64,000 nt of DNA from Janthinobacterium sp. (GTDB lineage: Bacteria > Pseudomonadota > Gammaproteobacteria > Burkholderiales > Chitinibacteraceae), in assembly GCA_025360045.1 (NCBI GenBank), contig JANYCY010000074.1:62001-126000 (forward strand), written 5' to 3'. Below are positions 8,440-23,374 of the stretch, one piece after another. The translations under genes were made by a program, and so were the position numbers. The notes beneath the pieces were generated by a model that saw nothing but the letters and a program-made list of their open reading frames with translations, was not told where the DNA came from and did not search any database. Each line of letters opens with the position of its first letter. The first letter of the stretch is position 1.

Positions 8440-9153
8440 TTACGCACATTTTTGTACTGCCTTTAAATACTCCCGTTTGGGCTGTCGCCCCGATCGCAAA
8501 CCTTCCAGCCTTTGCGCCTCTTCTTCCAATTCACTTCTCCCTGGTGTGGCATAAATCCGCGCACTGGCCGTGCTGCTCTGGCCCAAGGCATAAGCCACCT
8601 GTGCATAGGGATCTTTTGCTATGGTTTCCCTCATAATTTGCCGTGCCTTGGTATGGCGAAACCAGTGTGGGGAAGCATCGGCCGGTAAGCCCGCCTTGGC
8701 CGCCCACTCTGCCAGCCGTGCCTGATAGCTACGCACCGACAAAGCCATCCCTTCTTTACGCCCTGCCACCAAGGGGCCATCCACAATCGGGTTTAAAGCC
8801 AGCAATTGGCGCAGGGCCGCTGCCGCCGCATTGTTCAAAATGTAGCAATGGGCATTGCGCTCGGTCACCCGCAAGGCTTTTTGTGTCAGCGGATTCAACA
8901 CCGCCACCCCCGCCTCTTTTAAGATCTTGCCTTTCACCCCCTTCCGTTTTTCGGCCGCGATATACAAACGCCCATCCGCCAACCAGCGCTCCGCATCTTG
9001 CCGCGTAGACGCGGCAAACTCGCTGATACGCAGGCCGGTTTCCAACAAAAATTCATACACCGCCAAATCACGCTGCGCCAATTCATCGGCTCTATGCGCC
9101 TTTAGTGTCTTGAATAATTGCTTCAACTCTGCTTGAGTAAAATCGTTATTCAT
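8440..9153 (-). CDS. Tyrosine recombinase, catalytic domain only
   Basis: A 237-residue protein with the tyrosine recombinase signature: TGLRISEF (first Arg), SPHWFRHTKA (HxxR), and ARIYATPGRS (likely nucleophilic Tyr). The sequence starts at the catalytic domain (FTQAELKQLFKTLKAH). The usual N-terminal core-binding domain is missing, as in FimB/FimE-type invertases. The substrate may be the 30-bp palindrome just downstream. It overlaps the Arc-type gene (9146-9328) by 8 nt. This is the second recombinase of the prophage; the one at 21605-22609 sits next to the attachment site and is the better candidate integrase. Confidence 0.8.
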   Translation of the reverse strand: MNNDFTQAELKQLFKTLKAHRADELAQRDLAVYEFLLETGLRISEFAASTRQDAERWLADGRLYIAAEKRKGVKGKILKEAGVAVLNPLTQKALRVTERNAHCYILNNAAAAALRQLLALNPIVDGPLVAGRKEGMALSVRSYQARLAEWAAKAGLPADASPHWFRHTKARQIMRETIAKDPYAQVAYALGQSSTASARIYATPGRSELEEEAQRLEGLRSGRQPKREYLKAVQKCA

Positions 9154-18191: not shown

Positions 18192-19052
18192 TTAGTGTGT
18201 TGTGTAGCCTATTTTGCTACGCGCCAGCTTTAAATCCAGCGCCACCATATGGGCAACCCGCTTGCCAGCTATTGCCCGCTCTGTTTCTTCTGCCGTCAGC
18301 AAGCCCTGAACACGCAGCATGCGCTTCCAAACCCGGTCACTGATTGCGCCCAAACGCTGCCATTCCTCACGTAAACCGCCACGCTGGGCCACATGCTCAA
18401 TAAAATGCGCGGTTCTGAATACCAACACCTCGCGCCCAGCCAATACTTCCAGCTTATGCGGCGCTTTGTACTGGCCGTTTTCTACTTCATCCAATAGGGC
18501 CTTGACCAGCCAGCACCAAGCGTCACTGAGTAAGGGGATTTCAGGCGAGCTCAATACGGGCGGTTTAAGCTCCAGCTCTGCATAGATGGCCGTCAGTAGC
18601 ACGCCCAAATTGTCTTTTAATGCTGGGTTATTAGCGTTAGACCAGCGGCCTAGCAATTTTGTCGCTTGCTCAATGAGCTGGCATCGGGAAATGTCGGGTT
18701 TTGGATTTGACAGGGCGTAGCTGCCAGTTTTGCGGATGGATGGAATCACATCTCCTGCTATCCACATTTGAAAGGGCAAAGCTTTGGGTTTGTCGCTACG
18801 TACTACGAAAAAATACAAACCCTGTTCTGTCAGGAAAATGGTGTCTCTTATTCCAGAGGTGGTATTAGCGGCTAATACCACCCTCCATATATCGGGCACA
18901 TGAGAAACGGTAGTTGATCCATTCCATATAATCCCTAAGGCCTGAGCCACATCTTTAGCGCAAAACAGCGGAGTAGCCTTTTCATCGTACTCAACACGTA
19001 ATAATTGCTCTTCAAACGCAAACGCCATTGGGTAATTCTGAGTTTCAGCCAT
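18192..19052 (-). CDS. BRO-N domain protein with distinct C-terminal domain
   Basis: A 286-residue protein from the ATG at 19052 (MAETQNYPMAFAFEEQLLRV), with AAGGGG upstream. Residues about 10-115 are BRO-N: TPLFCAKDVAQALGI, IFLTEQGLYFFVVRSDKPKA, then IAGDVIPSIRKTGSY. The rest is a helical region ending with EVLVFRTAHFIEHVAQRGGL and RVWKRMLRVQGLL, which resembles the winged-helix-like C-terminal module of phage replication or regulatory proteins. Role: probable phage regulator. It shares a CTTACAAGGG leader with the other BRO gene. It sits between the small paralog genes and TerL. Confidence 0.75.
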   Translation of the reverse strand: MAETQNYPMAFAFEEQLLRVEYDEKATPLFCAKDVAQALGIIWNGSTTVSHVPDIWRVVLAANTTSGIRDTIFLTEQGLYFFVVRSDKPKALPFQMWIAGDVIPSIRKTGSYALSNPKPDISRCQLIEQATKLLGRWSNANNPALKDNLGVLLTAIYAELELKPPVLSSPEIPLLSDAWCWLVKALLDEVENGQYKAPHKLEVLAGREVLVFRTAHFIEHVAQRGGLREEWQRLGAISDRVWKRMLRVQGLLTAEETERAIAGKRVAHMVALDLKLARSKIGYTTH

Positions 19053-19107
19053 GATTGAACCCCTTGTAAGTGGCCGTGAGAATAACAAACAGAGGGACAA
19101 AACATCT

Positions 19108-20850: not shown

Positions 20851-21327
20851 TTACACGGCTTTGCTGATGATTTTGCTAATGCGATCGTTAGATAGGGATA
20901 TTGCGTAATGCTCTTTCATGGCCGCTTGAATCTGGATCGAGCTGGCCCCCTTTGCAGCCAAGGCTCTGATATGCAAATCGCGCTGGTAGCGCTGCCAGCT
21001 TTTAAACGGCCTGCAGCGTAGCAACAGCATGCCGGTATCGGTGCGCGGCACATCATCCGCACGATCAACCTCGCGCCACATCTCTAAAAAAGCATCGACG
21101 CCGATTTTTTCCGCGACGCGCAACCAAAACGGCTGCAGCCCCATTTTGTCGAGATTGTCCAAGCGCGGATCGCGCGGCAAAAGTTTGAAACCAGTGCAAT
21201 TCTGTAGGTACCCACCTCCCCCAAGGCCGAGGGCTGATCGCCTATGCCGACCTCCCACCCCTAGCTGCCCTAACTCTTCCCTGCTGACTTCCCTAAATGC
21301 ACTGCGCACTTGTACGGTGTTGCTCAC
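20851..21327 (-). CDS. Putative DNA-binding protein, terminase small subunit-like
   Basis: A 158-residue basic protein starting MSNTVQVRSAFREVSREELG. The N-terminal part is Gly/Arg-rich (GVGGRHRRSALGLGGGG). The C-terminal helices LHIRALAAKGASSIQIQAAM and SLSNDRISKII look like a helix-turn-helix. It is the first gene of the packaging cluster after the integrase. Motif AAAGCGCAGTG lies 38-48 bp upstream (21365-21375). Position and HTH suggest a terminase small subunit or a late-gene regulator; neither is certain. Confidence 0.5.
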   Translation of the reverse strand: MSNTVQVRSAFREVSREELGQLGVGGRHRRSALGLGGGGYLQNCTGFKLLPRDPRLDNLDKMGLQPFWLRVAEKIGVDAFLEMWREVDRADDVPRTDTGMLLLRCRPFKSWQRYQRDLHIRALAAKGASSIQIQAAMKEHYAISLSNDRISKIISKAV

Positions 21328-21604: not shown

Positions 21605-22609
21605 TCATATCGACCCCATCCTTTTAAGCAATTCTGAAGCTGGCGTACGGATCTTCGCCAGCGGATTGGCTCTATCAATCGTCTGGGTCTTCTTTTTCAT
21701 TGCCAGATGCGTATAGATCCGGGTGGAGTCTGCAGACGAATGCCCCATCAGCTCGCCGGTTTGGTTTTCTGGCACATCGGATTCGGTCAGCTCGGTGCCA
21801 AAGCGGTGACGCAAGGCGTGCGGGTGGAGCTGATCCTTTGGGACTCCTGCCTTTAGGCCGTGCCGAATCACAATGCCCTGCACGCCTCGAGCAGAAAGCC
21901 GACGACGTTCACCAATGAACTCATGCGCGGGAATGCGGCGGTTGTTGGTAGAAACAAACAGCGGCTGATCGCCATTGGCCAGAGCCGAATCAATATCCGC
22001 ATGATCTTCATGCTCCATATAAACCCGAAGCAAAAGCTCGGCCTCACGCGGTAGCGGCACCAGCCGCTCCTTTTCGCCCTTCTCGAACGTCCGGACTGAT
22101 AATCGCAGCTGGCCATCCACCGTAAACGGCACCAAGCTGCTGCGGTTTAATGCCACCAGCCCTGCCAGGCGCAGCCCGCAACCGATCAGCACGGCAAAAA
22201 TAGCTGCATCGCGGATACCTTCAAACCTTGACAGATCCGGTGCAGACACTAGCCGCTCGGCGTTTGATAGCTCAATGACTCGCGGGAGTGGTTTACCTGA
22301 TTTGGGATACGGCAGGCTTTCTGCAGGGTTTTTCCCGCTGATATGCCCAAGTCGATGCATCCATTTATAAAACTCTCGGATACAGGATATATACGGGATC
22401 CGGCTACGGGCATGTAGCTGGAATGTTTTATTCAAATACATGCCCGTAAATAGCAGCAGCTGCTGGTCATCACACTCACGCGGATCCTGCCCCTTTAGCC
22501 ATGCACCGAATCGCTGCAAAATATCGCCGTATGCCTGAATCGTCCGCACTGAGCAGCCATCATTCATTCGTTTGTAATCTAAGAAGCGATCCTTGAAAGA
22601 ATCAATCAT
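21605..22609 (-). CDS. Phage integrase, tyrosine recombinase
   Basis: A 334-residue XerC/D-like recombinase. The N-terminal core-binding domain covers about 1-105 (TIQAYGDILQRFGAWL). The catalytic domain has GCGLRLAGLVAL (Arg), HPHALRHRFGTEL (HxxR), LMGHSSADSTRIYTH (His and Tyr nucleophile). It lies 1.4 kb from the tRNA-Leu fragment at 24005-24062, so it probably catalyses integration there. The phased CCGTGGAT repeats just upstream (22645-23005) may be its arm-type sites or those of a partner factor. Confidence 0.9.
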   Translation of the reverse strand: MIDSFKDRFLDYKRMNDGCSVRTIQAYGDILQRFGAWLKGQDPRECDDQQLLLFTGMYLNKTFQLHARSRIPYISCIREFYKWMHRLGHISGKNPAESLPYPKSGKPLPRVIELSNAERLVSAPDLSRFEGIRDAAIFAVLIGCGLRLAGLVALNRSSLVPFTVDGQLRLSVRTFEKGEKERLVPLPREAELLLRVYMEHEDHADIDSALANGDQPLFVSTNNRRIPAHEFIGERRRLSARGVQGIVIRHGLKAGVPKDQLHPHALRHRFGTELTESDVPENQTGELMGHSSADSTRIYTHLAMKKKTQTIDRANPLAKIRTPASELLKRMGSI

Positions 22610-22644: not shown

Positions 22645-23005
22645 CCGTGTTCCGTGGATCAGCGCAAACAATATTATAACCCTTTGTTTTTCTTGAATAA
22701 ATCAATTAAATCAATCCACCACTAAGCCGTGGATTACCTTTGCAATTCGTGGACAGTTTCACGTAATTTTCCATCTTCCGTGGATCTATACCTGCAATCC
22801 GTGGATTCTATTTTTTGCCTTTATCTATCTCTATCTCTTTATTTTAAAAAGAAAAAGAAAGAAATAAGGACAAAAAAAACCCAAATCAGAACAAAATTAA
22901 AACCGTGGGGAAAAGATGGCAAACCGTGGAATTAAAAGCCTAACCCGTGGGTATAGTTTTCTAATTAATCAAAGACTTAGCAACAAAGAGTAGCAAAATC
23001 CACGG
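22645..23005. repeat. Array of CCGTGGAT repeats with helical phasing
   Basis: Nine copies: 22652, 22727, 22747 (TCGTGGAC), 22778, 22799, 22903 (CCGTGGGG), 22924 (CCGTGGAA), 22945 (CCGTGGGT), and one inverted copy at 22998-23005 (ATCCACGG). Steps between starts are 75, 20, 31, 21, 104, 21, 21 and 53 bp, all close to multiples of 10.5 bp, so most copies face the same side of the helix. The array occupies the spacer upstream of the integrase, with an AT-rich stretch at 22840-22900. Candidate integrase arm sites, iterons or a partition site. Confidence 0.7.
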
Positions 23006-23374
23006 GTCGTGCATACCTGCGGCTATTTCTTATTTAGCCTTACCCCTCAGGGCCTTCTTTTCAGGTTTTTCTCTAGGCTGGCCAGCTTTAGAGCGACACC
23101 CAAGGCCAGCGGCCACCAGCGTCGCTCACCTTTGCCTTCTCTTCGCCAGCGGCGCAGCCGGAACGCGGCCTTTTTCCTGCGTGGGGGGTACGGGGGACAA
23201 AGCAAAGGCGACGCAACACAGGCCCTTTGTGTAGATGTTAAGAAGCCGGCGCAAGGCCGGCTTCAGGTATTTAAATATTTAGGCGGAGAGAAGGGCAAGG
23301 TTGGCCAAGCCAAACGAACATGGCCACCTGATGAGGTGGCCATGTTTCTAAAAATGGGGCCAAGGCCCCAAGGT
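23006..23374. other. Structured non-coding stretch with tandem perfect hairpins
   Basis: Three consecutive hairpins: GAAGCCGGC/GCCGGCTTC (23242-23264, 9-bp stem), AACATGGCCACCT/AGGTGGCCATGTT (23317-23346, 13-bp stem, 4-nt loop) and GGGGCC/GGCCCC (23356-23369). The preceding part (23100-23230) is GC-rich. A plus-strand frame exists (23009-23419) but its sequence is Arg/Pro/Gly-rich without ribosome site, so I treat it as non-coding. The layout beside repeats and integrase suggests an origin, recombination or RNA element. Confidence 0.5.

What the first reader, a model, noticed from the sequence alone, without database searches (positions are those of the whole stretch)
22645..23005. Nine CCGTGGAT repeats phased on the DNA helix upstream of the integrase
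Steps between copies (75, 20, 31, 21, 104, 21, 21, 53 bp) are close to multiples of 10.5 bp, so the sites lie on one face. An AT-rich stretch splits the two clusters, and the last copy is inverted. It looks like an ordered nucleoprotein array: integrase arm sites, iterons for replication, or a partition site. The number of copies is high for integrase arms.
Basis: seen in the sequence. Interest (0 to 1): 0.7.

Follow-up and report, generated by a model that had tools for sequence, protein, structure and literature searches.

The report
Phage replication origin beside a recombinase
The helix-phased repeats are most likely the DNA replication origin of a prophage, read by the tail domain of the phage's own primase-helicase, and the same 400-bp layout recurs in many other phages with the repeat 'word' changed to suit each one; the neighbouring recombinase is a bystander.

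Summary
The array is real. It is not a set of integrase arm sites. The prophage sits between tRNA-Leu repeats next to another integrase. The adjacent recombinase is XerC/D-like with no arm-binding domain. In lysogens (G000, G042) the array is intact away from the att site. The whole ~400-bp architecture is conserved: two phased clusters of one word flanking an AT-rich pyrimidine/purine inverted repeat, an IHF-type site, and a final inverted copy. The word changes from phage to phage (CCGTGGAT, CTGTGGA, GGTGGAT, CGGACAG, CCGCGCA, CGTGGCA, CCGAGGAT). The array follows the phage's primase-helicase (phrog_5629), not the recombinase. Six Burkholderia P2-like phages with this primase and no such recombinase carry it, as do 36 of 76 further primase loci (strict detector, 0/76 shuffled). 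XerD-type loci with another primase have another kind of array. Word similarity tracks primase identity (rho 0.79), not XerD once primase is controlled (0.18). The primase C-terminus is predicted as a winged helix resembling the SaPI Rep origin-binding region. Best explanation: an iteron replication origin of the PICI/P4 kind. Function is inferred, not shown.

The parts
22645..23005 (+). iteron array (proposed replication origin, ori): two phased clusters of a CCGTGGAT-type word
   Evidence: layout conserved in relatives
22652..22659 (+). iteron 1 CCGTGGAT (left cluster)
22727..22734 (+). iteron CCGTGGAT (left cluster)
22746..22754 (+). iteron variant TTCGTGGAC (left cluster)
22778..22785 (+). 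iteron CCGTGGAT (left cluster)
22799..22806 (+). iteron CCGTGGAT (left cluster)
22811..22877 (.). AT-rich (78%) pyrimidine tract / purine tract inverted repeat between the clusters; proposed DNA-unwinding element
   Evidence: conserved in relatives by inspection
22903..22910 (+). iteron variant CCGTGGGG (right cluster)
22924..22931 (+). iteron variant CCGTGGAA (right cluster)
22945..22952 (+). iteron variant CCGTGGGT (right cluster)
22967..22979 (+). AATCAAAGACTTA, fits the IHF consensus WATCAANNNNTTR; conserved at this place in most relatives
22998..23005 (-). terminal inverted iteron CCGTGGAT
23183..23198 (+). GGGGGGTACGGGGGAC, conserved element about 180 bp beyond the array, also in KL3, AP3 and Mana; role unknown
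21605..22609 (-). XerC/D-like tyrosine recombinase (P0001, 334 aa), neighbour of the array; no N-terminal arm-binding domain
20851..21327 (-). 158-aa protein with a C-terminal helix-turn-helix-like part, next gene after the recombinase in 38 of the loci compared
18192..19100 (-). Bro-N antirepressor-like protein whose residues 193-291 match the C-terminal domain of the phage primase
24005..24150 (+). attR: copy of the tRNA-Leu 3' end; direct repeat of the intact tRNA-Leu at the other prophage end (outside the window)

Best explanation
The array is the replication origin of a roughly 40-kb prophage. The phage's multi-domain primase-helicase (P0002, 921 aa, phrog_5629) would bind the repeated words through its C-terminal winged-helix domain. 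Two phased clusters would then hold initiator assemblies on one face of the DNA on either side of an AT-rich pyrimidine/purine inverted repeat. IHF, or an IHF-like bend at AATCAAAGACTTA, would help fold the complex. The AT-rich centre would melt, and the same protein would load as helicase and prime both strands. In the excised circle the origin lies about 3.5 kb downstream of the primase gene. Integration at tRNA-Leu separates the two to opposite ends of the prophage. Shown: the array, its conserved geometry with a changing word, its linkage to the primase rather than the recombinase, and the predicted winged-helix fold. Inferred: binding, melting and origin activity.
For: (1) The same array (words, spacing, AAAAAATAGGC, pyrimidine/purine inverted repeat, IHF-type site) occurs in Burkholderia phages KL3, Mana, AP3, KS14, FLC5 and FLC10. 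All have the primase; none has the P0001-type recombinase, its HTH protein or the other genes of that module. (2) Unbiased search from the primase: 38 of 76 loci have the array within 2.6 kb downstream by a strict word-independent detector. Of these 38, 36 have no P0001-family recombinase; 0 of 76 shuffles were detected. (3) Natural swap: L056 and L076 keep the recombinase (50% and 46%) but have a different primase (phrog_47/6444) and a different array (GGGTGCAAG/GGGGCAAG words, 9-12 bp steps, no pyrimidine/purine repeat). L064, with a third primase, has yet another array. (4) In 15 phages word similarity follows primase identity (rho 0.79; 0.70 given XerD) and not XerD given primase (0.18) or the HTH protein given primase (0.13). 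The best single primase stretch is the last 71 residues. (5) AlphaFold2 model of the primase C-terminus (pLDDT 86) contains a winged helix. Top structural matches are SaPIBov1 Rep initiator helicase 8tch (Z 8.7) and the oriT-binding TcpK 5vfx (Z 8.1). (6) P4 alpha protein and SaPI Rep recognise origin repeats with winged-helix or C-terminal domains (PMC4234260, PMC7581432). PICI origins are two iteron sets flanking an AT-rich region, 3' of the initiator gene (PMC6092414). Plasmid iterons are helix-phased (PMC5043065). (7) It is the top repeat cluster in the window prophage.
Against: No replication, binding or footprint data exist. The structural match to SaPI Rep is modest (10% identity, rmsd 9 over 180 residues; Z near 8 can be a common arrangement) and there was no sequence match in the PDB. 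GC skew gives no consistent sign at the array. Half of the primase loci were missed by the strict detector, though 28 of those 38 have the IHF-type motif downstream. In the window prophage and in Microcystis phage yong1 the array is not next to the primase gene. Coevolution statistics use related sequences, and the 8-mer motif call for one locus (L046) failed.
Confidence: 0.86

Rival explanations
1. Arm-type sites and core of an attP (or dif/res-like site) of the adjacent XerC/D-like recombinase, with the pyrimidine/purine inverted repeat as crossover core and IHF as bender.
For: Recombinase gene directly adjacent in about 40 loci; clusters flank an inverted repeat; IHF-type site; active-site residues R147, H264, R267, H290, Y299 invariant.
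Against: No arm-binding domain. tRNA-Leu att and arm-like TTTAGTTCCGCAAAA sites belong to another integrase, C83:45812-46876. In G042 a large serine recombinase gene abuts tRNA-Asn while the array is intact inside. The array is present without this recombinase in six Burkholderia phages and 36 further loci, and it changes type when the primase changes although the recombinase does not.
Confidence: 0.05
2. Partition (centromere) or incompatibility/copy-control site, as in P4 crr or plasmid parC, bound by the primase or a Par protein rather than acting as the origin itself.
For: Direct-repeat clusters resemble some parC or crr sites; KS14, a plasmid prophage, carries ParA about 0.4 kb from its array (PMC3091744).
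Against: Annotated carriers KL3, AP3 and Mana show no ParA and the host-integrated phages have no obvious need of partition. AT-rich centre, phasing and primase linkage fit an origin. A crr-like control role next to an origin is not excluded.
Confidence: 0.06
3. Operator/promoter array for late-gene transcription, bound by the 158-aa HTH (Mor-like) protein encoded after the recombinase.
For: The array lies upstream of the recombinase and packaging genes; the HTH protein is conserved beside it and its identity correlates with the word (rho 0.68).
Against: Correlation nearly vanishes once primase identity is controlled (0.13); the HTH protein is absent from KL3, KS14, AP3, Mana, FLC5 and FLC10, which keep the array.
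Confidence: 0.03

Closest known systems
PICI/SaPI replication origins with Rep initiator-helicase (SaPIbov1, EcCICFT073)
   Same: [quoted passage not shown] initiator reads iterons with its C-terminal domain; iteron sequence differs between elements (PMC6092414, PMC7581432)
   Different: Found in full-size 32-45 kb phages (P2-like myophages and siphophage-type prophages); primase and helicase in one phrog_5629 protein with Toprim; copies spaced 21 and 32 bp on one helix face; long pyrimidine/purine inverted repeat in the centre; conserved IHF-type site and terminal inverted copy
Satellite phage P4 ori/crr and alpha protein
   Same: Primase (Toprim)-helicase-origin binder in one protein; winged-helix domain binds repeats (PMC4234260)
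   Different: Different primase family (phrog_5629, not phrog_47/6444); different word and geometry. Some relatives here (L056, L076) have a phrog_47/6444 primase, which I liken to P4 alpha, and a matching different array
Phage lambda ori (O protein iterons plus AT-rich region)
   Same: Initiator-specific repeats, DNA bending, adjacent AT-rich opening region
   Different: Lambda iterons are in one cluster inside the O gene and bind O dimers; lambda uses separate O, P and host DnaB
Lambda-type attP arm sites
   Same: Two groups of short sites around a central inverted repeat with an IHF-type site
   Different: The adjacent recombinase has no arm-binding domain, is not the integrase, and is absent from many array carriers

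Membership tests
Iteron-type replication origin | several copies of a short element-specific repeat, in phase with the DNA helix | tested here: met
Iteron-type replication origin | AT-rich opening region beside the repeats | tested here: met
   78% AT at 22806-22900 against 50% for the prophage
Iteron-type replication origin | cognate initiator encoded by the same element, linked to the repeats across genomes | tested here: met
   primase linkage and coevolution
Iteron-type replication origin | initiator binds the repeats and the region supports autonomous replication | not testable with these tools
   needs EMSA/footprint and a plasmid replication assay
[quoted passage not shown]
   definition from PMC6092414
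PICI/SaPI-type origin | origin immediately 3' of the initiator gene | tested here: inconclusive
   met in KL3, AP3, Mana and 38 of 76 loci; in the window phage about 3.5 kb downstream in the excised circle, with the integration module between
PICI/SaPI-type origin | initiator C-terminal DNA-binding domain homologous to SaPI Rep | tested here: inconclusive
   winged-helix fold, best match 8tch Z 8.7, but no sequence match
PICI/SaPI-type origin | element is a phage satellite lacking structural genes | tested here: not met
   portal, head and tail genes present in the prophage
Integrase arm-type sites (attP) | integrase with an N-terminal arm-binding domain | tested here: not met
   P0001 starts directly with a SAM-like core-binding domain at residue 7
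Integrase arm-type sites (attP) | array split by, or adjoining, the att crossover in lysogens | tested here: not met
   array intact about 1 kb inside attR; intact about 3 kb inside the G042 prophage end
Integrase arm-type sites (attP) | array follows the integrase across genomes | tested here: not met
Partition site | adjacent ParA/ParB-type genes across carriers | tested here: inconclusive
   ParA annotated in KS14, FLC5 and FLC10 only; none annotated in AP3, KL3 and Mana

The most novel reading that the evidence does not exclude
A previously unrecognised, widespread family of phage replication origins in which a fixed roughly 400-bp protein-DNA scaffold (phased sites, pyrimidine/purine inverted repeat, IHF-type bend, terminal inverted copy) is held constant while the recognition word and the winged-helix reader of the primase change together. 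It would extend the PICI-type origin, described as shared by no other known replicon, to full-size phages.
Probability: 0.7. Interest if true: 0.65.

Novelty: new variant of a known kind. Interest (0 to 1): 0.56.

Why it matters
Origins of most temperate phages are unmapped. This gives a sequence-level definition of an origin for a whole primase family (phrog_5629), including the characterised Burkholderia phages KS14, KL3 and AP3; the KS14/KL3/KS5 genome paper mentions no iterons (PMC3091744). The set of paired words and winged-helix domains is a natural recognition-code experiment. It also shows that a layout claimed to be unique to phage-inducible islands occurs in full-size phages, which bears on where island replicons came from.

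Tried and rejected
Integrase arm sites and recombination core: pursued first because about 40 recombinase loci share the array; rejected after the primase swap and the Burkholderia phages. HTH (Mor-like) protein as reader: first crude test favoured it, but controlled for primase it did not. Collection scan for CCGTGGAT triplets: 10 contigs, with other spacing or isolated repeats, none with the module genes; negative. Scan for a second iteron locus in the window prophage: none stood out. GC skew: an extremum lies within about 0.7 kb of the array in five of eight genomes, but its sign differs and gene strand confounds it; inconclusive. Promoter scan: nothing above shuffles. tRNA search: the tRNA-Leu fragment is not reported by ARAGORN in the window, found by direct search. 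PDB sequence search with the C-terminal profile: no convincing hit. Literature on P4 iteron sequences was not in the library, so the likeness of the L056/L076 words and primase to P4 rests on memory.

Full report
WHAT IS THERE. Five are exactly CCGTGGAT and four share only CGTGG. A degenerate inverted copy near 22715 was missed. Chance is excluded: 6 exact 8-mers in the window against 1.1 expected, with 0 of 100 shuffles reaching 6. It is the top local word cluster in the 40-kb prophage, and a CCGTGGA pair at this spacing occurs only here in the 4.0-Mb genome. Direct copies are phased at 10.5 bp (R 0.89, p about 4e-4). Between the clusters lies an AT-rich (78%) pyrimidine/purine inverted repeat, and after the second cluster AATCAAAGACTTA, which fits the IHF consensus (consensus from general knowledge).

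NOT THE INTEGRASE. The window lies in one contig of the host assembly. A 43-bp tRNA-Leu 3' end occurs twice, 40.4 kb apart. The intact tRNA-Leu stands next to a 354-aa integrase at C83:45812-46876, and the prophage ends share a 150-bp direct repeat plus arm-like TTTAGTTCCGCAAAA sites at both ends. So that enzyme most likely made the insertion. The gene beside the array (P0001) is XerC/D-like, begins directly with its core-binding domain and has no arm-binding domain. In many relatives a large serine recombinase sits two genes downstream of it; in G042 that gene abuts tRNA-Asn, the array staying intact inside the prophage. A short third tyrosine recombinase (window 8440-9153) is also present in all 22 records checked.

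CONSERVED SCAFFOLD, CHANGING WORD. About 40 viral contigs and genomes carry the recombinase, most with the same upstream layout, but the repeated word differs: CCGTGGAT, CTGTGGA, CTGATGGA, GGTGGAT, CGGACAG, CCGCGCA and others. Within clusters the steps stay at 21 (49 times), 32 (13 times) or 19-20 bp. The gap across the centre varies and is often, not always, near whole turns. A changing word on a fixed scaffold implies a coevolving reader protein.

WHO READS IT. Two XerD-bearing phages (L056, L076) have a different primase (phrog_47/6444) and a different array; L064, with a third primase, has another again. Arrays of the window type whose primase could be identified go with a 915-aa primase-helicase, phrog_5629 (P0002 in this prophage). 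Conversely Burkholderia P2-like phages KL3, Mana, AP3, KS14, FLC5 and FLC10, found through this primase, lack the recombinase and its neighbours yet carry the array with its parts. A search started from the primase profile gave 76 usable loci: 38 with the array within 2.6 kb downstream, 36 of these without the recombinase, none among 76 shuffled loci; 28 of the 38 missed ones still have the IHF-type motif downstream. In 15 phages the word tracks primase identity (rho 0.79) and, controlled for it, neither XerD (0.18) nor the HTH protein (0.13). The strongest single primase stretch is its last 71 residues. This is correlation among related sequences and should be read as support, not proof.

THE READER DOMAIN. 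The primase C-terminal part (alignment) was modelled with pLDDT 86; residues 105-213 of the model form a winged helix. Best solved matches are the SaPIBov1 Rep initiator helicase (8tch, Z 8.7, rmsd 9 over 180) and the oriT-binding TcpK (5vfx, Z 8.1). Z near 8 alone could be a common arrangement, and no sequence match was found. The same domain is fused to a Bro-N protein in the window, and a separate piece of it lies between primase and recombinase in L134.

MECHANISM. Best reading: a replication origin. Initiator primase-helicase molecules bind the phased words in two clusters, IHF or a similar protein bends the right side, the AT-rich centre opens, and the helicase-primase loads. Shown here: anatomy, conservation, linkage, fold prediction. 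Inferred: binding, opening, replication. In the excised circle the array is about 3.5 kb downstream of the primase gene (from coordinates); integration puts them at opposite prophage ends.

AGAINST WHAT IS KNOWN. PICI origins are described as two iteron sets flanking an AT-rich region just 3' of the initiator gene, and as shared by no other known replicon (PMC6092414). SaPI Rep reads them with its C-terminal domain (PMC7581432). P4 alpha binds its origin repeats with a winged helix (PMC4234260). Plasmid iterons are generally helix-phased and often use IHF (PMC5043065). The array works like these, but it sits in full-size phages with a different primase family and a stricter, longer scaffold. 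I therefore call it a new variant of a known kind. The KS14/KL3/KS5 genome paper mentions no iterons; other phage papers outside the library may.

Noticed in passing
window 8440-9153 (-): Short (237 aa) tyrosine recombinase with catalytic domain only; a counterpart is present in all 22 virus records with the XerD-like recombinase checked. Role unknown.
   Followed up: partly
L043, L007, L040 and about 30 other loci, downstream of the XerD-like gene: A large serine recombinase of about 530 aa two genes downstream of the XerD-like gene; many proviruses end at its 3' end, and in G042 it abuts tRNA-Asn. The window phage has a tyrosine integrase at tRNA-Leu instead: an integration module swap.
   Followed up: partly
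window 18192-19100 (-); L134 6285-6671 (-): The primase C-terminal winged-helix domain occurs fused to a Bro-N antirepressor-like protein and as a separate piece between primase and recombinase; possibly a competitor for the iterons.
   Followed up: no
window 23183-23198: GGGGGGTACGGGGGAC, a noncoding element conserved about 180 bp beyond the array in KL3, AP3 and Mana too; function unknown.
   Followed up: no
window 20851-21327 (-) and homologues: N-terminal part of the HTH protein carries a conserved GVGGR...GGGYL.NC peptide with low-complexity context in most phages, absent in the CGGACAG group.
   Followed up: no
L056, L076, L064, L133: Other replication-module types beside the same XerD-like recombinase: different primase or large ORF with its own repeat array (GGGTGCAAG, GGGGCAAG, AGTGTAACC, GTGACA).
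   Followed up: partly
window 23317-23346: Long inverted repeat AACATGGCCACC-TGATGA-GGTGGCCATGTT near which related prophages start to diverge; terminator-like.
   Followed up: no
KL3 (NC_015266), AP3 (NC_047752), Mana (NC_055863), KS14 (NC_015273): Unannotated origin-like arrays in published phage genomes, downstream of the primase gene.
   Followed up: yes
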